From positions 1 to 20,681 of IMG/VR virus record IMGVR_UViG_3300035162_001676: DNA of 20,681 bases; one strand, given 5' to 3'. Of this stretch, positions 548 through 18,075 are shown in pieces. A program made the translations under genes and the position numbers. Positions within the stretch are counted from its first letter, which is position 1; each line of letters starts with the position of its first letter. This DNA comes from a virus. Below the pieces are notes generated by a model. It searched no databases. It saw nothing but the letters and a program-made list of their open reading frames with translations, and was not told where the DNA came from.

Positions 548-571
548 ATGGTAAAGGCTGTTTCACTATGG
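548..571 (-). promoter_or_regulatory. Repeated upstream element, copy 2
   Basis: This 24-bp copy differs from 293-316 at only two positions. It abuts the ATG at 542 with only five bases between. If its TACATT (minus strand, 548-543) were a -10 box, transcription would start inside the gene. So in this copy the element may instead be an operator or leader sequence, or the true start codon may be the GTG at 566. Confidence 0.55.
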
Positions 572-583
572 TTTATAGTGGTA

Positions 584-614
584 AAACAAATAGAGTATTA
601 AACTCTATCTGTTT
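584..614 (-). terminator. Terminator overlapping the stop of the 598-750 gene
   Basis: A 13-bp stem (584-596 with 602-614, one G-T wobble when read as minus-strand RNA) has a 5-base loop TTAAT, followed on the minus strand by TTTGTTTT-type sequence. The stop codon TAA of the 598-750 gene lies in the loop. The pairing can extend outward to a GTGG/CCAC clamp with a small bulge. Confidence 0.75.
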
Positions 615-750
615 CCACAACAACATCATTACTACCATATGCATCACAATATCCTGCACTACAAGATGACTTGCAAGAGCACATAGTGTAAATGAATAAA
701 CCTGTTATAGCAATATAAATTGCTAATCTAATTTTAGTTGAATCTTTCAT
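598..750 (-). CDS. Small Cys-rich membrane-anchored or lipoprotein-like protein
   Basis: This 50-residue gene runs from ATG at 750 to TAA at 598-600. The protein has a short basic N-terminus (MKDSTKIR), a hydrophobic stretch of about 15 residues, then a compact Cys-rich segment (TMCSCKSSCSAGYCDAYG) and an acidic tail ending in ETDRV. Cysteines are at residues 24, 26, 30 and 35. The hydrophobic segment before Cys suggests either a lipoprotein with a weak lipobox or a one-pass protein whose Cys-rich part lies outside the membrane. The coding call is supported by the terminator hairpin overlapping the stop and by an upstream repeat copy at 767-792. The family is not recognised. Metal binding or disulphides are possible, not shown. 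Confidence 0.65.
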   Translation of the reverse strand: MKDSTKIRLAIYIAITGLFIYTMCSCKSSCSAGYCDAYGSNDVVVETDRV

Positions 751-766
751 ATATTTATTTACTATT

Positions 767-792
767 AGGATAAGGCTGTTAACAAACTATGG
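767..792 (-). promoter_or_regulatory. Repeated upstream element, divergent copy 3
   Basis: It shares TAAGGCTGT and the flanking CTATGG with the copies at 293-316 and 548-571, but with two or three inserted bases between them. It lies 17-42 bases upstream of the ATG at 750 on the minus strand, the position expected of a promoter or operator. Confidence 0.45.
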
Positions 793-805
793 CAATTCTA
801 AAGAC

Positions 806-822
806 CACAATCAAAGATTGTG
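806..822. repeat. Short perfect inverted repeat, operator-like
   Basis: CACAATC and GATTGTG are exact reverse complements separated by AAA. The element lies upstream of the leftward gene at 750 and next to the divergent repeat copy. It has no T-run, so an operator-like protein site is more plausible than a terminator. Confidence 0.35.
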
Positions 823-1040
823 CTGCAGTATGGGTATATATAGTTACAAAACTCAGACATCATTTATATATAATACATGAGAGATCACACATGATACTTA
901 CATTATTAACAACACATACAACATACCATTGATATCATACATCATACATAGTTAGATACACACAAGGTATAAATCTTTCCTACAGTAATTCTTTTTGTTT
1001 TTTATTCTCTGTGAAAACACAATCCTCTCTACAAACTTAA

Positions 1041-1094
1041 GGGGGGTAGCACCAGGGTGGTGGTGGGTGGGGGTCTTGTTATATAGGACCCACC
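1041..1094 (+). other. G-rich block with G-quadruplex and hairpin potential
   Basis: Within an AT-rich genome, 1041-1073 holds G-runs of 6, 3, 3 and 5 (1041-1046, 1055-1057, 1065-1067, 1069-1073), separated by 8, 7 and 1 bases. That is a near-canonical intramolecular G-quadruplex pattern. The same strand can instead pair GGTGGGT (1062-1068) with ACCCACC (1088-1094), or GGGTC (1071-1075) with GACCC (1087-1091). These are mutually exclusive structures. The function is unknown. Confidence 0.5.
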
Positions 1095-1132
1095 TCTATG
1101 TCTACCACAAAGTATTTCTACCACCGTAACCC

Positions 1133-1161
1133 TTGACAATGTCCTCAGTAATTGCTATCTT
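1133..1161 (+). promoter_or_regulatory. Candidate host-type promoter for the 1168 gene
   Basis: TTGACA (1133-1138) is followed after 17 bases by TATCTT (1156-1161). This fits a sigma-70 pattern and also the flavobacterial TTG-spacer-TAnnTT form. A start site about seven bases beyond would coincide with the ATG at 1168, giving a nearly leaderless message. It differs from the GTATATT boxes used by the other plus-strand units. Confidence 0.45.
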
Positions 1162-1167
1162 ATATGT

Positions 1168-2016
1168 ATGAAGCTATTGACTTTTTTATTTTTATTCCCT
1201 ATACTTATAGCATATGCACAAATTGATGAAGATTTTAATAGTTTTAATGGTACTGGGGAGTGGCTTAGTCCTGGGGGTAACACTGGTTCTCATGATGGTG
1301 ATCTTTGCTTTAATATTACAGGAAACTATTTGGCTAATGAGTTCTATGTATTTCAGTCTCCTATGTATGACTTTAGTACGTGGAGTACAGTGGAGTTATT
1401 CTGGAATCAAGAAAGTAGTGTTCGTAATGGGGATAGTTTTAGATTATACTTATATGATAATGGTTGGAGTTACTATGATATTAGTAATCTTAGTGGTTAT
1501 TATGGAGTCACTGTCAATACTACCACCACGGCCTTAGCTTTTGTATTAGTTACAAATGGATCAGGTAATCTTAATGGTAGGTATTCACATGTAAGGTTTT
1601 TATCTATATATGATCCGACACCTTTACCTGTAGAGTTATTAGATTTCTCTGCAAGCTTGCGAGATAAAGGAACAATGGTTGAATGGTCTACAGCATCAGA
1701 AAACAACTCACTGAAGTTTGATTTGTATAAATCTTCAAATGGAAGTACCTGGGGGATGTTATCAGAGATCCCTGCAGCGGGGTTCAGTAATAGTGAACTT
1801 ACATATAAATACTTTGACACACGTATATCATCTGGATACAGCTACTATAAGTTAATTCAGATTGATATAGATGGAGAAGAAGATGTATATGGCCCCGTGT
1901 ATACATACCGTAATGTATTTTCCGAGCCGAGGAAGTATAACTTAATGGGACAAGAAGTAAATGAATCTTACAAAGGTTTAATAATAAATAATGGTAAATT
2001 AGAAATAAATGAATAA
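1168..2016 (+). CDS. Secreted protein with type IX secretion-like C-terminal region
   Basis: A 282-residue protein with a clear signal peptide (hydrophobic residues 2-16, likely cleavage after AYA at residue 17). Residues 18-150 form an aromatic, Asn/Ser/Gly-rich beta-sandwich-like domain. Residues 152-252 match the style of a domain common in secreted Bacteroidota proteins: LPVELLDFSA, then VEWSTASENNS, a YKSSNGSTW strand, and SYYKLIQIDIDGEE. The last 26 residues (YNLMGQEV, then KGLIINNGK) resemble the type A T9SS sorting domain, which usually carries a GxEV-like motif and a GxYxxxxxxNGK-like ending. It seems slightly degenerate. In the cell the product would be exported to the periplasm and perhaps the surface. 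Its biochemical activity is not recognised. Such genes are typical of hosts, so acquisition from a host is likely. It overlaps the next gene by eight bases. Confidence 0.85.
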   Translation: MKLLTFLFLFPILIAYAQIDEDFNSFNGTGEWLSPGGNTGSHDGDLCFNITGNYLANEFYVFQSPMYDFSTWSTVELFWNQESSVRNGDSFRLYLYDNGWSYYDISNLSGYYGVTVNTTTTALAFVLVTNGSGNLNGRYSHVRFLSIYDPTPLPVELLDFSASLRDKGTMVEWSTASENNSLKFDLYKSSNGSTWGMLSEIPAAGFSNSELTYKYFDTRISSGYSYYKLIQIDIDGEEDVYGPVYTYRNVFSEPRKYNLMGQEVNESYKGLIINNGKLEINE

Positions 2017-2210: not shown

Positions 2211-2513
2211 ATGAGTGAATTTATTTTAAGAGGTCAACGAATATTGATTGACAAGCCTGAGAAGAAAGAGAAAAAAGAAGGTGAGTTAGATCTTATCATT
2301 CCCGATAACATGGAAAAAGATGCTGAGAAGGAGATGATGAAGGAATGGACTCATCTAAATGTTTGTGCCGTAGGTACAGATGTGACTGATGTAAAAGTCG
2401 GAGATAAGGTTTATGTTAAAACAGGCGCTTTACACAATGCAGAGATTATTGATTTAAATGGATCTATTAAAATGATGGTAACTGTACATGACATTGTAAT
2501 GATATGGCAATAA
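2211..2513 (+). CDS. GroES/gp31-like co-chaperonin
   Basis: A 100-residue protein that fits the GroES fold. The N-terminal strand FILRGQRILIDKP is followed by a long, charged, probably disordered loop (about 16-46) containing the hydrophobic tripeptide LII (28-30). It matches in position the IVL-type tripeptide with which GroES mobile loops bind GroEL. Residues 51-69 (VCAVGTDVTDVKVGDKVYV) give the classic V-x-A-V-G...VKVGDKV strand pair, and the C-terminus TVHDIVMIW matches the final strand. It should form a heptameric lid for the host GroEL, as T4 gp31 does for capsid protein folding. No GroEL is seen here, so it would work with the host chaperonin. The capsid genes lie in the same window. 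It overlaps the next gene by ten bases. The loop is longer than in bacterial GroES. Confidence 0.85.
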   Translation: MSEFILRGQRILIDKPEKKEKKEGELDLIIPDNMEKDAEKEMMKEWTHLNVCAVGTDVTDVKVGDKVYVKTGALHNAEIIDLNGSIKMMVTVHDIVMIWQ

Positions 2514-4363: not shown

Positions 4364-5161
4364 ATGTTAAGAAATATAAATAACTTCTTTAATATCATTA
4401 AAGAGAAAAGAGTTAAAAAGACTCTTAAGAATACGGATATGATTCCTATTGGTTCTAGAGATACTCTTAATCCTTCTCAATATAATGATACTGCAATTAG
4501 TTGGCAAGATTTTCAATCAATTGGTGGTGGTGGAACAGGACCGCAAGGACCAGCAGGACCTCCAGGAGCAAATGGTGCTCCAGGTTCTACAGGTGCAACA
4601 GGACCTATAGGCCCTCCAGGACCAGTTGGTGCTGCAGGATTAAATTTTGTTGGTACATGGAGTGCAGCTACAGCATATAGTGCAAATGATGTTGTATTCT
4701 ATAATGGATCAAGCTATGTTGCAGCAAATGCAGTTGGGCCATCAGCCACTCCTCCAGATACAGATACAGCTAACTGGGATTTCTTAGCATTACAAGGTCT
4801 AGATGGTCCACAAGGTCCTATTGGTCCAATTGGTCCAGCAGGAGCTAGTCTATGGACACCTATAGTACCTTTAACATTTGCAGGAGCTGCAGATACAATT
4901 GATCTTTCTACAGGTAATACGTTTACTATAGATATTACTGGAAGTACTACAATATCAATGTCTAATTTAGGTGTAGGAGATTATATCTTTATTGTTGATA
5001 ATACTGGTGGCTTTACTGTAACTTTACAATCTGCTCCAACTAATACATTTACTAATAATGGTTTACAACCTGTATTTTCAGGCATAACACTTATGAAAGG
5101 AACTTCTGATGGAACAAGTATATACATTACTTCATTAGAGAACATGCAACAAACAACATAA
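4364..5161 (+). CDS. Collagen-like tail fibre protein
   Basis: A 265-residue protein whose two Gly-X-Y blocks define it. Residues 59-92 carry about eleven triplets (GPQ GPA GPP GAN GAP...) and 145-162 carry six (GLD GPQ GPI GPI GPA GAS). Between them (93-144) is a compact domain, FVGTWSAATAYSANDVVFY then GSSYVA and TANW, whose Trp/Tyr pattern resembles carbohydrate-binding modules of family 5/12. The C-terminal part (about 165-265) is a Thr/Ser/Asn-rich beta domain. Collagen-like triple helices are known as trimeric shafts in phage tail fibres, so a fibre with a sugar-binding module is likely. It is followed one base later by the LamG fibre gene. The N-terminus (residues 1-50) probably anchors to the virion. 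Confidence 0.85.
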   Translation: MLRNINNFFNIIKEKRVKKTLKNTDMIPIGSRDTLNPSQYNDTAISWQDFQSIGGGGTGPQGPAGPPGANGAPGSTGATGPIGPPGPVGAAGLNFVGTWSAATAYSANDVVFYNGSSYVAANAVGPSATPPDTDTANWDFLALQGLDGPQGPIGPIGPAGASLWTPIVPLTFAGAADTIDLSTGNTFTIDITGSTTISMSNLGVGDYIFIVDNTGGFTVTLQSAPTNTFTNNGLQPVFSGITLMKGTSDGTSIYITSLENMQQTT

Positions 5162-5162
5162 T

Positions 5163-6596
5163 ATGATTCCAGTTAGAAGAAACATAGACACAGATGATTT
5201 AATCTTCTGGTTAGATCCTTCTAATCCTTTGTCATATATTGGTAATGAAGCTTCTGTAAGTTATACAGGAAATGGTAAGAATCAATTTGCAGGAACTCTT
5301 GACTTTACAAATACAGGTCTAGGTGTAACATCTAGAGTTTGGAATGATACAGCAGCTGGTATAGACAATGCTACAGTAGCTAATGAACCTTTAGTACTTG
5401 ATCCAAATGGTGGAACTGAAACTACAGCTTTTATTGAAACTGCTAATACTGGTACTAAGTTTTTAAATACTAGAATTGAAATAGTACCACCCGCTCCTCA
5501 AGACTCATCTATTAGAGATCAAATTACTTATTCACTTTATGTAAAACAAGGTCCTGGAAGTAGAAATATTAGAATATCTCATTCTAATGCTCCACCCAAT
5601 AGTACAATTATTTTTGATTTTTCTACAAATACAATTACATCTGCAGTTAATGTAGATGACTCAGGTTTTGAAGATGCTGGTGGAGGCTGGTACAGAATAT
5701 GGTATACAACTATAATGGATACCACAACTACTCTTAATAATACTCAAGCCAGAACATACATTTATATTTTAGGTCCTGGAGATGCAATAACATATACAGG
5801 AGATGGTACATCAGGAGTATATATATGGGGTCCTCAATGGGAACAAGGTGTTTTATCTAATTATACAGAAAGACCTAGTGCAGCAAATTTTGAATATTTT
5901 CAAAACAATAAATTTGTAAGAATATCAACAGATACAACTCTTGCAAACCCAACACCATATACTACTTCATTTGAAGGTACAAACTTTAGATTTGATGGTG
6001 TAAATAGAGGTTTTTATGGAGGTGCTGATATAAGAACACCTTTTAGACCTAATCCAGATAATGCATCTTTACAAGATCATTCTGCATTTGCTTGGGTTAA
6101 ATTAGATAAAACAGGAAATCCTGACCAAGGTTTGGGATGGTCTCCTAATCTTAAAGTATATACAGTTTTAGGTAATATAGGAGGAAGATCTAATAGTGGT
6201 GTATTTGGTATTGAAGAAAACGGTACTTCATTAATTTATAAATTAAGATGTATAAAGTCCATTGGAGGTGTTACATCTCCTGTTTTACAATCTGCGGCTA
6301 TTGCAGATTTAGATAACAGTTGGCACTTAATTTCTTTTAGTTTTAATTTTACTTTAAGAACCGCATATTTTTATCTTGATGGTGCTCTTATTAGCTCTGA
6401 GCAAATATTTGATCCTATTGCTTCTATAAATGGTAGTACAGGATCTGGTACAATAGGATATTTTCCTATATCTGGGCAACCTACACCATCTGGACAATTT
6501 AAAGGTTCTATGAATAGTGTAGGACTTTATAATAAAGAATTATCTGCAGATGACCATGAAGGGTTATATAATGCAACTAAATATAGATTTACATAA
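5163..6596 (+). CDS. Tail fibre/receptor-binding protein with LamG domain
   Basis: A 477-residue protein. It opens with DDLIFWLDPSNPLSY (11-25), a signature of many marine phage fibre proteins with concanavalin A-like (LamG) domains. Around residues 110-235 lies a second beta-sandwich typical of phage fibres and sugar-binding modules (TYSLYVKQGPGSRNIRIS, GGGWYRIWYT and WEQGVLSNYTERPSAANF). Residues about 300-477 form the LamG fold, with HSAFAWVKLD, NSWHLISFSFN, AYFYLDGALI and FKGSMNSVGLYNKELS as its usual strands. It probably binds host surface glycans as a tail fibre or spike. It lies one base after the collagen-like fibre and shares its operon. Confidence 0.85.
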   Translation: MIPVRRNIDTDDLIFWLDPSNPLSYIGNEASVSYTGNGKNQFAGTLDFTNTGLGVTSRVWNDTAAGIDNATVANEPLVLDPNGGTETTAFIETANTGTKFLNTRIEIVPPAPQDSSIRDQITYSLYVKQGPGSRNIRISHSNAPPNSTIIFDFSTNTITSAVNVDDSGFEDAGGGWYRIWYTTIMDTTTTLNNTQARTYIYILGPGDAITYTGDGTSGVYIWGPQWEQGVLSNYTERPSAANFEYFQNNKFVRISTDTTLANPTPYTTSFEGTNFRFDGVNRGFYGGADIRTPFRPNPDNASLQDHSAFAWVKLDKTGNPDQGLGWSPNLKVYTVLGNIGGRSNSGVFGIEENGTSLIYKLRCIKSIGGVTSPVLQSAAIADLDNSWHLISFSFNFTLRTAYFYLDGALISSEQIFDPIASINGSTGSGTIGYFPISGQPTPSGQFKGSMNSVGLYNKELSADDHEGLYNATKYRFT

Positions 6597-8595: not shown

Positions 8596-8922
8596 ATGGG
8601 AGTTACAGGATTTGAAATAGGTTTTGAAGCGTTAATATCATTATTATCAGCTATTGTAGGAGCATTAACTGTATGGTACAGTTTAAAAGGAAAGGTGGAT
8701 ATTCAGTCTGTAATTTTAAGTAATCTTAAATTAGACATGGATGAGCTTAAAGAAGATAAAAAATCAGGTCACCTAACATTACACAAAAGAATTGATGATG
8801 TTAAAAAACAGGTTGAAGAAAACCGTGTTACTCAAGACAGAGCAATAGCAGATCTAAAAACAGAAATGCAGGCTATGGAACTAAGAATAATAACAGCCAT
8901 TCATGAAGCTAGGGCTAAGTAG
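8596..8922 (+). CDS. Membrane-anchored coiled-coil protein of the lysis cassette
   Basis: A 108-residue protein with one N-terminal membrane segment (about residues 8-30, ISLLSAIVGALTVWYSL). A long charged heptad-like helix follows (about 38-105, LKLDMDELKEDKKSGHL through KTEMQAMELRI). A single membrane helix with a cytoplasmic or periplasmic coiled coil resembles XhlA-type accessory holins or antiholins. Its place at the head of the lysis operon supports that, but the family is not certain. Its 3' end overlaps the spanin-like gene by 20 bases, so the two are co-translated or coupled. Confidence 0.7.
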   Translation: MGVTGFEIGFEALISLLSAIVGALTVWYSLKGKVDIQSVILSNLKLDMDELKEDKKSGHLTLHKRIDDVKKQVEENRVTQDRAIADLKTEMQAMELRIITAIHEARAK

Positions 8923-9355
8923 TTTTATATTACTAATACTATTAATTACATCATGTACTCCTCAAAGGAGATTCATGAGACTTATAGAGAAACACCCTAA
9001 ACTTCTTACAACAGATACAATAACAATACATGATACTGTTATTGTTGAGATCCCCAGTGTTATTCATGATACAGTTTTTACAGAACACTTCTTTACAGAA
9101 ATAACTAGAGATACTTTAATACTTCAAAAGGAAAGACTTACTGTAAAAATATTTCATGACACAATAAAGAAAAGTGTTTATATATATGGAGAATGTGATA
9201 CTGTAATTGTAGAAAAGATTATAGAAAGAAAGATACCAGTAAAGTATTACGAGAAAACACCTCTTTGGAAAAAGGTTCTAAATTGGTTAATTATAGCAGT
9301 TATAATTTATGCAATAGTTAGACTGTTTTTATTTTTAAAAAAAAGATTACTATGA
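8903..9355 (+). CDS. Unimolecular spanin-like lipoprotein
   Basis: A 150-residue protein. The N-terminus is a lipoprotein signal (LILLITSC, lipobox ITSC at 15-18), which anchors the protein to the outer membrane. Residues 19-120 form a beta/charged periplasmic stretch with repeated HDTV-type segments (IHDTVIVEI, IHDTVFTEH, FHDTIKKS). A C-terminal membrane helix (about 128-145, WLIIAVIIYAIVRLFLFL) ends in KKR. A lipid anchor on one end and a membrane span on the other is the u-spanin architecture, known from T1 gp11, which fuses inner and outer membranes at the last lysis step. The amidase gene lies two genes downstream. The start chosen overlaps the previous gene by 20 bases; the lipobox fits that start. 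Confidence 0.8.
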   Translation: MKLGLSSFILLILLITSCTPQRRFMRLIEKHPKLLTTDTITIHDTVIVEIPSVIHDTVFTEHFFTEITRDTLILQKERLTVKIFHDTIKKSVYIYGECDTVIVEKIIERKIPVKYYEKTPLWKKVLNWLIIAVIIYAIVRLFLFLKKRLL

Positions 9356-9585
9356 AAAAGTTTTTTAAAGAATTATTAAGTGATGAGTCAGGACACTATT
9401 CATCAAAAAGATTAGGTGGTTTACTTTGCGTTTTAGCACTTGTAATATCATTAATAGCTAACACCTTCACTCATGGAGATATAAAGCCTGCAGAGTATCT
9501 TGTAGATGCTGTAGCTTTATTTGCATTTGGATCATTAGGGTTAACTTCAATTGACAAATTTACTAAAGCAAGAAATAAGAAATAA
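9352..9585 (+). CDS. Holin-like two-pass membrane protein
   Basis: A 77-residue protein with two membrane segments (about 21-38, LGGLLCVLALVISLIANT, and 49-66, YLVDAVALFAFGSLGLTS). A charged N-terminus (KKFFKELLSDESGHYSSKR) and a Lys-rich C-terminus (DKFTKARNKK) flank them. The size, the hairpin topology with a basic tail and the position between the spanin-like gene and the amidase all fit a class II holin, which opens the inner membrane to release the amidase. I recognise the DESGHYSSKR-type start as common in marine phage holin-like proteins. It overlaps the spanin-like gene by four bases. Confidence 0.75.
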   Translation: MKKFFKELLSDESGHYSSKRLGGLLCVLALVISLIANTFTHGDIKPAEYLVDAVALFAFGSLGLTSIDKFTKARNKK

Positions 9586-9604
9586 GATGGGGTAAGTGCA
9601 ATTT

Positions 9605-9613
9605 TAGTATATT
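9605..9613 (+). promoter_or_regulatory. Promoter box TAGTATATT before the amidase
   Basis: TTTTAGTATATT, the A variant of the box, is identical over 12 bases to the one at 18140-18151. It lies 46 bases before ATG 9660. A second weaker TTAATATAT at 9625-9633 is closer to the start. Confidence 0.5.
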
Positions 9614-9659
9614 TAACATTCTTTTTAATATATACTATACCTACAATAATAAGATACTT

Positions 9660-10358
9660 ATGGAAAAAATTATAACATGTCCAAATTGCAAAACAGAGTT
9701 TGATATGTCTGTTACACCTCATCAAACTGAAGAATCTAAATATCTTTGGATATTTGACAATGGTCACGGTGGAATAATAGATGGCGTTTATCAAACTGCT
9801 GGTAAAAGATCTCCAGTTTGGCCAGATGGTCAACAACTTTTTGAAGGAGAATTTAATAGAGCTATAGTAGCTAGATTAATGGATCTATGTAAAGCAAATA
9901 ATATAGATGCTGTTAACTTAGTAGACACTCAAGAAGATGTACCTTTATCTTATAGAACAGATAAAGCAAACTCACTTGCTAAATCCTCTGGAAAACCTTG
10001 TATATATGTAAGCATACATGCAAATGGTTTTGATCAGGAGTCTGCAAATGGTTGGTCAGTGTATACATCTCCAGGAGAAACAAAATCAGATGGGATTGCT
10101 ACAATTCTTTTTGAGAAATCTATGAGAGAATTTCAAGGAGAGTACATGAGAAAAGATACTACTGATGGTGATCCTGATAAAGAGTCAAACTTTTGGGTGC
10201 TTGTAAATACTACTATGCCTGCAATACTTTCTGAGAACTTCTTTATGACTAACTCAGATAACTGCCATAAGTATCTTCTTTCAGAGGATGGTAGAGATAG
10301 AGTAGCTAAGATTCATTTTGAAATGATTCAGCAGGTAGAAGCTGAGAATAAAGTTTAA
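9660..10358 (+). CDS. N-acetylmuramoyl-L-alanine amidase (endolysin)
   Basis: A 232-residue Amidase_3 enzyme that cuts the bond between muramic acid and L-alanine in peptidoglycan. Zinc ligands and the catalytic Glu can be placed as H36 in DNGHGG, E62 or E64 in FEGEFNR, H120 in SIHANG, and E192 in SENFFM. The usual Amidase_3 strand order (LWIFDNGHGG, ..., YVSIHANG, ..., AILSENFF) is kept. An N-terminal CPNC (C7, C10) suggests a partial zinc ribbon that may guide binding, but a second CxxC is not visible. No signal peptide is present, so it should need the upstream holin-like protein to reach the wall. It is the last gene of the lysis block, followed by the terminator at 10395-10422. Confidence 0.9.
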   Translation: MEKIITCPNCKTEFDMSVTPHQTEESKYLWIFDNGHGGIIDGVYQTAGKRSPVWPDGQQLFEGEFNRAIVARLMDLCKANNIDAVNLVDTQEDVPLSYRTDKANSLAKSSGKPCIYVSIHANGFDQESANGWSVYTSPGETKSDGIATILFEKSMREFQGEYMRKDTTDGDPDKESNFWVLVNTTMPAILSENFFMTNSDNCHKYLLSEDGRDRVAKIHFEMIQQVEAENKV

Positions 10359-15315: not shown

Positions 15316-18075
15316 ATGCAGGTATTTAACGCACTTCAATTAAAAAAAGGAGCTAAATCAGAACAAAATAGAATTGGTTCTGTTACTCAACCTTTACAAT
15401 TTTTACCTAAAAAGAAAAAAGATGCAGAATGGGCAGCTTGGAATTTAGATTGGCTAGAGTGGAATGGTTTAAAGCAATTGCGTAGAAACGGAAGAAGACT
15501 TTCTAAAAATTATAAACTTGCAAAAGGCCATATTGATAGATCTGATTACATAGTTGAAGAGGATAATGAAACAAGAACTATTGTTGACTTGCTGACTCAA
15601 AGTGATGAAGGTTCTGCATTAGAATTAAAATTTTATCCTATAATCCCAAATGTAATAAATGTATTAGTAGCTGAGTTTGCTAAAAGATCTACTAAACTTA
15701 CTTACAGAGCAGTTGATGAATTCTCATATAATGAAATGCTTGAGCAAAAAAGAGCTATGGTAGAGGAGGTTCTGTTAACACAAGCTTCTACTAAAGTTAC
15801 TGCAGCATTATTAGAACAAGGTTTAGATCCAGACTCTGAAGAAGCGCAAGAACAACTTAGTGGTGATAAGTTAAAAAGTCTTCCTGAAATAGAAATGTTT
15901 TTTAAAAAGAGTTATAGATCTATGATTGAAGAGTGGGCAACTCATCAGCATAAGGTAGATATGGAAAGATTTAATATAGATGAACTTGAGGAAAGAGGTT
16001 TTAGAGACATGCTTATTACTGATAGAGAATTTTGGCATATGAGAATGATGGAAGATGACTATGAAGTAGAACTTTGGAATCCTCTTTTAACTTTTTATCA
16101 TAAGTCTCCTGATCAAAGATACATATCAGATTGTAACTGGGTTGGTAAAAGTGATATGATAACTGTATCAGACGCAATTGATAAGTATGGATATCTTATG
16201 GATGAAGACCAGTTAAAATCTTTAGAGTCTATATATCCTGTAAGAGCAGCTGGTTATAATATTACGGGTTATCAAAATGATGGTAGTTTTTATGATGCTA
16301 CTAAATCTCATGAGTGGAATACTCAAAGACCATCTTTAGCAATGAGACAATATACTAGCTTTATGGGTCAAGAAGGTATTACAGATGGTAATGATGCTGT
16401 TCAACAAATACTTGCTCAAAGTGAAGATTATAAAGATGATGGTAATGCTTACTTAGTAAGAGTTAGTACAGCATATTGGAAGTCACAAAGAAGACTTGGT
16501 CATCTTACTAAAGTTAGTGAGCAAGGAGAAGTAATAACTGAAATAATTACAGAAGATTATCAAATAACTGATAAACCAATATATGATACAAGATTGTTTA
16601 AAAACAAATCAAAAGATAATATTGTATTTGGTGAGCACATAGATTGGATATGGATTAATGAAGTTTGGGGAGGTATTAAAATAGGTCCCAATTTACCAAG
16701 TTACTGGGGTATGAATACTTCTGATGGATTTACTCCAATGTACTTAGGTATAGATAAACCAAATCCAGGACCACTTAAGTTTCAATTTAAAGGTGACAAT
16801 TCTTTATATGGTTGTAAGCTTCCCGTAGAAGGAGCTGTATTCTCAGATAGAAATACAAAGTCTACAGCTTTAGTAGATCTTATGAAACCATTTCAAATAG
16901 GTTATAACATTGTTAATAACCAAATGGCAGACATATTAGTAGATGAATTAGGTACAGTTATAATGCTTGATCAAAATACACTACCTAAACATTCATTAGG
17001 TGAGGATTGGGGTAAAGGTAACTTAGCCAAAGCTTATGTAGCAATGAAAGATTTTCAAATGCTGCCCCTGGACACTTCTATTACAAATACAGAAAATGCA
17101 TTAAACTTTCAGCATTTTCAGAAACTTGATTTAGATCAAACTAATAGGCTTATGTCTAGGATTCAACTAGCTAATTATTTTAAGCAACAAGCTTATGAAG
17201 TAATAGGTGTTAATCCACAAAGAATGGGTCAACAAATTTCTCAGCAAACTGCTACTGGTGTAGAACAAGCTGTAAATGCATCATATGCTCAAACAGAAAT
17301 GTATTTTATTCAGCATGCAGATTATTTAATGCCAAGAGTTCATCAGATGAGAACAGACTTAGCGCAATATTATCATAGTACTGCTCCATCTACAAGATTG
17401 AGTTACATTACATCTGCTGATGAAAAAGTTAATTTTGAAATTAACGGTACAGATATGTTAATGAGAGATTTAAATATATACTGTAGCACAACTGCAAATC
17501 ATAGAGCTGTATTAGAACAACTTAAGCAAATGGCAATGCAAAATAATACTACAGGTGCTAGCATATATGATCTTGGTAAAATTGTACAGTCAGATTCTAT
17601 TGCTGAATTAAATGCTGCTATGAAAGATTCAGAAGCAAAACAGCAAGAGCAAAAGCAACAAGAAATGCAGTCTCAACAACAAATGCAAGAACAGCAAATT
17701 CAAGCTCAACAACAAGAACAACAAGCTGAAAGAGACTTTAAAGTTACAGAAGCTGAAAAAAGAGATCGTAAGGATATTCTTATTGCAGAAATTAGAGCTG
17801 CTGGTTATGGTTCAATGATGGACATTAATCAAAATGAACAATCTGACTATCAAGATGCTATGGCTGATATTAGAAAAACAGATCAATATCAGCAGCAAAC
17901 TCAAATGCAAAGAGAGAAGCAAGCTAATGATATGATTAAACATAATCAAAAAATGAGCATTGAAGAACAAAAGATTCAAGCTCAAAGAGATGTAGCTAAT
18001 AAACAACTAGAAATAGCTAGAGAAAATAAAAACAAATATGATGATAAATCATCAAAACCAAATAAGAAAAAATAG
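15316..18075 (+). CDS. Portal protein with long Gln-rich coiled-coil tail
   Basis: A 919-residue protein, five bases after TerL. Portal features include the clip/stem-style start (NLDWLEWNGLKQLRRNGR), FYPIIPNVINVLVAEFAKRS near residue 110, and a central region with FSDRNTKSTALVDLMKPFQ and VNNQMADILVDELG. Helical crown parts follow (YFKQQAYEVIGVNPQRM). It forms a dodecameric ring through which DNA passes and to which TerL docks. Residues 775-807 are extremely Gln-rich, and helical repeats run to the C-terminus (to about 919), making the tail longer than most portals. This tail may be a scaffold-like or DNA-contacting extension. I call portal from position, length and style; the sequence family is diverged. 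Confidence 0.85.
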   Translation: MQVFNALQLKKGAKSEQNRIGSVTQPLQFLPKKKKDAEWAAWNLDWLEWNGLKQLRRNGRRLSKNYKLAKGHIDRSDYIVEEDNETRTIVDLLTQSDEGSALELKFYPIIPNVINVLVAEFAKRSTKLTYRAVDEFSYNEMLEQKRAMVEEVLLTQASTKVTAALLEQGLDPDSEEAQEQLSGDKLKSLPEIEMFFKKSYRSMIEEWATHQHKVDMERFNIDELEERGFRDMLITDREFWHMRMMEDDYEVELWNPLLTFYHKSPDQRYISDCNWVGKSDMITVSDAIDKYGYLMDEDQLKSLESIYPVRAAGYNITGYQNDGSFYDATKSHEWNTQRPSLAMRQYTSFMGQEGITDGNDAVQQILAQSEDYKDDGNAYLVRVSTAYWKSQRRLGHLTKVSEQGEVITEIITEDYQITDKPIYDTRLFKNKSKDNIVFGEHIDWIWINEVWGGIKIGPNLPSYWGMNTSDGFTPMYLGIDKPNPGPLKFQFKGDNSLYGCKLPVEGAVFSDRNTKSTALVDLMKPFQIGYNIVNNQMADILVDELGTVIMLDQNTLPKHSLGEDWGKGNLAKAYVAMKDFQMLPLDTSITNTENALNFQHFQKLDLDQTNRLMSRIQLANYFKQQAYEVIGVNPQRMGQQISQQTATGVEQAVNASYAQTEMYFIQHADYLMPRVHQMRTDLAQYYHSTAPSTRLSYITSADEKVNFEINGTDMLMRDLNIYCSTTANHRAVLEQLKQMAMQNNTTGASIYDLGKIVQSDSIAELNAAMKDSEAKQQEQKQQEMQSQQQMQEQQIQAQQQEQQAERDFKVTEAEKRDRKDILIAEIRAAGYGSMMDINQNEQSDYQDAMADIRKTDQYQQQTQMQREKQANDMIKHNQKMSIEEQKIQAQRDVANKQLEIARENKNKYDDKSSKPNKKK

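What the first reader, a model, noticed from the sequence alone, without database searches (positions are those of the whole stretch)
1168..2016. Phage gene for a secreted protein with a T9SS-like C-terminal sorting region
The protein has a signal peptide, an LPVELLDFSA-type domain and a C-terminal YNLMGQEV...KGLIINNGK stretch, typical of proteins that Bacteroidota send to their surface through the type IX system. A phage making such a cargo could decorate or modify the surface of its infected host, for example to block superinfection or change adhesion, or it may be a captured host gene. The sorting end looks slightly degenerate (no canonical final GKK), so function is not assured.
Basis: partly seen in the sequence, partly recalled or inferred. 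Interest (0 to 1): 0.75.

Follow-up and report, generated by a model that had tools for sequence, protein, structure and literature searches.

The report
Phage-encoded surface protein with compact sorting-like tail
A crAss-like phage carries a gene for a secreted, adhesin-like protein whose last ~30 residues resemble a compact surface-sorting tag found on unrelated secreted enzymes of flavobacteria, so the phage may decorate its infected host by borrowing the host's own type IX secretion machine.

Summary
ORF 1168-2016 (282 aa) is a real gene under purifying selection, present in about 20 related viral contigs and syntenic with the terminase/portal module of a crAss-like phage. It encodes an N-terminal signal-peptide-like segment, a MAM-like jelly roll (18-152), an Fn3-like LPVELLDF domain (153-249) and a short tail (254-282). 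The tail does not match the type A, B or C T9SS sorting models. It belongs to an uncatalogued compact C-terminal signature (NLmGQEV..KGl.iE.y.DGt..Kk) found in 56 of 150 sampled genomes of one flavobacterial order. All 40 distinct tails examined lie within 8 residues of the stop, and they occur on unrelated secreted domains. On secreted endonuclease I this tail replaces the usual type A domain. At least two other phage types (T4-like, huge phages) carry such proteins. Phage-encoded T9SS cargo is already published, so the idea is not new; the family and the compact tail appear to be. The window's own copy has lost the last, lysine-rich part of the tail, and export was not tested. Best reading: a phage-encoded surface adhesin sent out through Sec and then probably T9SS. 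Its benefit to the phage is a guess.

The parts
1168..2016 (+). gene for the secreted phage protein (282 aa)
   Evidence: full-length relatives; dN/dS 0.20-0.34
1168..1218 (+). signal-peptide-like N-terminus, residues 1-17 (MKLLTFLFLFPILIAYA)
   Evidence: read from sequence; same pattern in most relatives; no SignalP-type tool available
1219..1623 (+). MAM-like jelly-roll domain, residues 18-152
   Evidence: AlphaFold2 model (pLDDT mostly 82-94 here); VIA-align Z 13.0 Elapor1, 12.6 meprin beta; conserved in 7 phage sequences
1624..1914 (+). Fn3/Ig-like LPVELLDF domain, residues 153-249
   Evidence: Z 11.9 to N-terminal domain of pectate lyase PelI; 30-49% identical to the penultimate domain of many Bacteroidota secreted proteins
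1927..2013 (+). compact C-terminal tail, residues 254-282; profile match covers residues 255-273, last 9 residues diverged
1133..1167 (+). possible promoter abutting the start codon: TTG-N20-TATCTTATATGT|ATG; similar TATnTTATAGT|ATG or TATATTATTAT|ATG in L001, L002, L098, L099, L101, L107
   Evidence: read from sequence; the TATnTTATAGTATG pattern is not enriched elsewhere in the window; a weak, descriptive feature

Best explanation
[quoted passage not shown] Outside, the MAM-like jelly roll acts as a binding module on an Fn3-like spacer and changes what the infected cell's surface binds; most plausibly it masks receptors against further phage or makes cells stick. Shown here: gene, conservation, domain architecture, and relationship of the LPVELL domain and tail to host secreted proteins. 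Inferred: signal peptide cleavage, recognition of the tail by T9SS, surface display, and benefit.
For: Signal-peptide-like N-termini in most relatives. The same LPVELL domain is followed either by a full type A sorting domain or by this compact tail in Bacteroidota proteins. The tail profile hits 56 of 150 genomes of one flavobacterial order and none of 120 other genomes drawn from the phylum of a Campylobacteraceae MAG, apart from one mis-binned phage contig. All 40 distinct tails examined end within 8 residues of the stop; 25 of 27 whole ORFs have signal-peptide-like starts; 16 of 40 lack the LPVELL domain. They sit on endonuclease I, arylsulfotransferase and PHB-depolymerase domains. Natural swap: endonuclease I proteins of the same order end either in a PNP-type CTD (L175, L176, L177, L202) or in this tail (L172, L198, L200). 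A huge-phage relative carries a genuine TIGR04183 domain (L009). Literature: the last 22 residues of the HBP35 CTD suffice to export GFP (PMC10202324); phage-encoded T9SS cargo reported (PMC7468147; PMC6949934).
Against: No curated T9SS model matches. Profile-profile comparison of the tail with type A CTDs gives 3% probability, though in the expected register. Type A CTDs are seven-stranded sandwiches with about 40% of their surface buried in SprA/PorV (PMC10994853), which a 30-residue tail cannot imitate alone. The window copy lacks the conserved lysine-rich end, and two relatives (L098, L101) stop before KGLII. Tail and T9SS co-occurrence is uninformative, as 149 of 150 genomes have type A cargo.
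Confidence: 0.58

Rival explanations
1. Secreted but not a T9SS substrate: the protein goes to the periplasm by Sec and acts there or is released at lysis; the tail is a vestige in this clade.
For: Tail end diverged in the window copy; L098 and L101 lack the KGLII part; no T9SS model match.
Against: The NLMGQEV..KGLII core is kept in most relatives down to about 50% identity; dN/dS in the last 45 columns is about 0.32, as in the rest of the gene (few sites).
Confidence: 0.22
2. A virion component (decoration or receptor-binding protein) encoded next to the head genes.
For: Gene lies at the edge of the packaging/head module in the window lineage and close downstream of the major head protein gene in a T4-like phage (L114); Ig- and jelly-roll folds are common in virions.
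Against: Signal-peptide-like start, and LPVELL and tail homology to host secreted proteins; virion proteins are assembled in the cytoplasm.
Confidence: 0.12
3. A recently captured host gene with no role for the phage.
For: LPVELL domain and tail are common in flavobacteria.
Against: Purifying selection; conserved in about 20 contigs and syntenic with TerL in nine; N-domain not found in 150 flavobacterial genomes (which had no positive control).
Confidence: 0.05

Closest known systems
T9SS type A sorting domain (TIGR04183 / PF18962)
   Same: C-terminal position, behind the same LPVELL Fn3-like domain; a glycine followed by hydrophobic residues and then, in canonical tails, a lysine-rich end; alternates with it on endonuclease I
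   Different: About 30-37 residues instead of 72-85; no PNP first half; not detected by the models; profile comparison not significant
Phage-encoded T9SS cargo of Cryophage (PMC7468147)
   Same: Phage gene for a protein presumed to use the host T9SS
   Different: Cryophage carries type A domains on an endoglucanase, a GH39 and a PA14 protein; here a MAM-like/Fn3 protein with a compact tail
T9SS sorting-domain ORFs upstream of the head section in crAss-like phages (PMC6949934)
   Same: Phage group and genome position
   Different: Those are gut phages with recognised sorting domains, next to BACON proteins
MAM domain proteins (meprin, RPTP mu) and reelin subrepeats
   Same: Jelly-roll fold; in RPTP mu also followed by an Ig-type domain
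   Different: Sequence identity only about 10%; fold-level likeness shows no function

Membership tests
T9SS type A sorting domain (TIGR04183/PF18962) | Match to the family profile | tested here: not met
   No NCBIfam hit for P0001 or its close phage relatives at E up to 10; no Pfam Por_Secre_tail hit
T9SS type A sorting domain (TIGR04183/PF18962) | PNP-containing first half (motifs A and B), about 72-85 residues | tested here: not met
   Only about 30 residues follow the Fn3-like domain; no PNP
T9SS type A sorting domain (TIGR04183/PF18962) | Conserved lysine(s) near the C-terminus (motif E) | tested here: not met
   Window ends NNGKLEINE, one lysine and no KK; KK-type ends exist in L094, L096, L111 and host proteins
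T9SS type A sorting domain (TIGR04183/PF18962) | Secretion depends on T9SS | not testable with these tools
   Needs an experiment
T9SS type B (TIGR04131) and type C (ChiA-like) CTDs | Match to an NCBIfam model | tested here: not met
   No NCBIfam hit of any kind for P0001
Compact tail group defined here (alignment A4) | Profile match at the extreme C-terminus of a protein with a signal-peptide-like start | tested here: met
   29.5 bits, residues 255-273, but without the last third of the profile
LPVELL Fn3-like domain of Bacteroidota secreted proteins | Sequence homology | tested here: met
   212 confirmed stretches in genome contigs, best 80 kept with E about 1e-12 or better
Sec signal peptide | n-, h- and c-region with cleavage site | tested here: inconclusive
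   Pattern read by eye and conserved; no predictor available
crAss-like phages (Crassvirales and relatives) | Portal, TerL and major head protein of the group | tested here: met
   phrog_6547 5.5e-97, phrog_6681 1.3e-56, phrog_11589 2.2e-15; portal hits to crAss-like and Cellulophaga phages

The most novel reading that the evidence does not exclude
The compact tail is an uncatalogued class of T9SS sorting signal used by one flavobacterial order and by at least three kinds of phage, which use it to coat infected cells with binding proteins.
Probability: 0.42. Interest if true: 0.75.

Novelty: new variant of a known kind. Interest (0 to 1): 0.55.

Why it matters
If right, many flavobacterial secreted proteins, and phage proteins shown on infected cells, are missed by current sorting-domain models. 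A 30-residue natural tag would also test what the T9SS translocon minimally needs, and would make phage remodelling of the host surface through T9SS testable across several phage groups.

Tried and rejected
NCBIfam and Pfam scans of the whole protein, tail and N-domain: nothing credible (Flagellin_D3 at 0.02-0.12 is sub-threshold). Profile-profile link of the tail to type A CTDs: not significant. Co-occurrence with T9SS: uninformative, because nearly all genomes of the order have type A cargo and SprA is common in the phylum (229 of 296). PDB sequence search with the family alignment: no hit. Isolated phages: no homologue in the phage collection except four uncultured huge phages. The Campylobacteraceae MAG relative (L012) is taken as mis-binned phage: a 7-kb contig, about 62-64% identical, followed by a phage gene of the window's lineage. 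Literature search for a short T9SS signal: nothing found, within an open-access library only.

Full report
What is there. The ORF at 1168-2016 is exactly as described: 282 aa, plus strand. The window is a 20.7-kb virus record with portal, terminase, major head protein and endolysin; the portal's relatives are crAss-like phages, including Flavobacterium and Cellulophaga phages.

The gene is real and old. Scans of viral contigs gave relatives covering both the N-domain and the C-terminal half in about 20 contigs at 41-81% identity. In nine contigs it lies upstream of the same TerL gene as in the window, and in others next to the same GroES-like, phosphoesterase or endolysin genes. Pairwise dN/dS is 0.20-0.34.

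Architecture. A signal-peptide-like N-terminus ends in A/G-Q in most relatives. The AlphaFold2 model (mean pLDDT 83.9, pTM 0.52, 17 sequences) gives a jelly roll at 14-152 that aligns with MAM, reelin and Eph ligand-binding domains (Z 10-13) and an Fn3-like domain at 155-249 (Z 11.9 to PelI). The best viral matches are mostly uncharacterised phage proteins. The low pTM means the domain arrangement is not reliable. A shared fold shows no function; 'binding module' is inference.

The tail. None of the curated models matches. Yet among relatives of the LPVELL domain, some Flavobacteriales proteins end in a full PNP-type domain and others in a short tail like the phage's. A profile of 12 short tails (A4), which excludes the window protein, finds it with 29.5 bits against 8.5 for the best of 3000 shuffles. 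The same profile has hits in 56 of 150 genomes drawn from one order (the order is that of a Crocinitomicaceae MAG, L024), but only in the centre genome itself of 296 drawn from the phylum, and in none of 120 other genomes drawn from the phylum of the Campylobacteraceae MAG, besides the mis-binned phage contig. Four host genomes contributed rows to A4 (one of them is in the order sample), so their own hits are by construction. All 40 distinct tails examined end 0-8 residues from the stop; 16 are not preceded by an LPVELL domain, and some are on clear enzyme domains.

A natural swap. Among secreted endonuclease I proteins of the order, several end in a PNP-type sorting domain and three (L172, L198, L200) in the compact tail. 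This is the strongest sequence argument that the tail does the job of a sorting domain. It remains an argument by position, not a demonstration.

Weak points. Homology to type A CTDs is not shown. The known recognition of type A CTDs uses a whole beta sandwich (PMC10994853), although 22 residues of HBP35 sufficed to export GFP (PMC10202324). In the window copy the profile match stops at residue 273; the canonical E.y.DGt..Kk end is replaced by NNGKLEINE, a variant shared in style by L102, L103, L107 and L122. L098 and L101 lack everything after LGQE[VI]K[QY].

Other phages. Tails of the same kind occur on larger proteins with CUB and GEVED domains in contigs that carry T4-like genes, in one case close downstream of a major head protein gene (L114), and on a huge-phage protein (L008). 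Another huge phage has a true TIGR04183 domain (L009).

What is known. Phage-encoded T9SS cargo was reported for Cryophage (PMC7468147), and T9SS sorting-domain proteins upstream of the head section in crAss-like phages (PMC6949934). The concept is therefore known; the MAM-like phage family and the compact tail were not found described in the library searched.

Verdict. A new variant of a known kind: a phage-encoded secreted protein that probably uses the host T9SS through an uncatalogued compact tail. Interest 0.55.

Noticed in passing
window 2211-2513: GroES-like co-chaperonin gene, sub-threshold Cpn10 match (E 0.0007); conserved neighbour in L001, L002, L006, L107.
   Followed up: partly
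window 8596-10358: Probable lysis cassette: Amidase_3 endolysin at 9660-10358, preceded by a lipobox-bearing protein with a C-terminal hydrophobic segment at 8903-9355 (possible spanin) and small membrane proteins; the latter read by eye.
   Followed up: no
window 4364-6596: Collagen-like protein with a CBM5/12-like stretch and a neighbouring protein with tail-protein matches; the Pfam matches are just under cut-off.
   Followed up: no
window 566-1167: About 600 bases without an obvious gene between a leftward arm and the rightward structural arm, with G-rich runs near 1040-1076; pieces such as GGACCCA and CTACCAC recur upstream of the gene in L001 and partly in L107.
   Followed up: partly
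L012 (CAKZOX010000148.1): Contig of a Campylobacteraceae MAG holds a 64% identical copy followed by a gene of the window's phage lineage: probably a mis-binned phage contig.
   Followed up: partly
window 15316-18075: The top-ranked portal match is Leptolyngbya phage Lbo-JY46, a phage recorded from a cyanobacterium (33% identity), unexpected for this mostly Bacteroidota-infecting group.
   Followed up: no
L098 and L101: Two related phages have the tail cut after LGQE[VI]K[QY] by a stop, with no downstream continuation in the other frames.
   Followed up: yes
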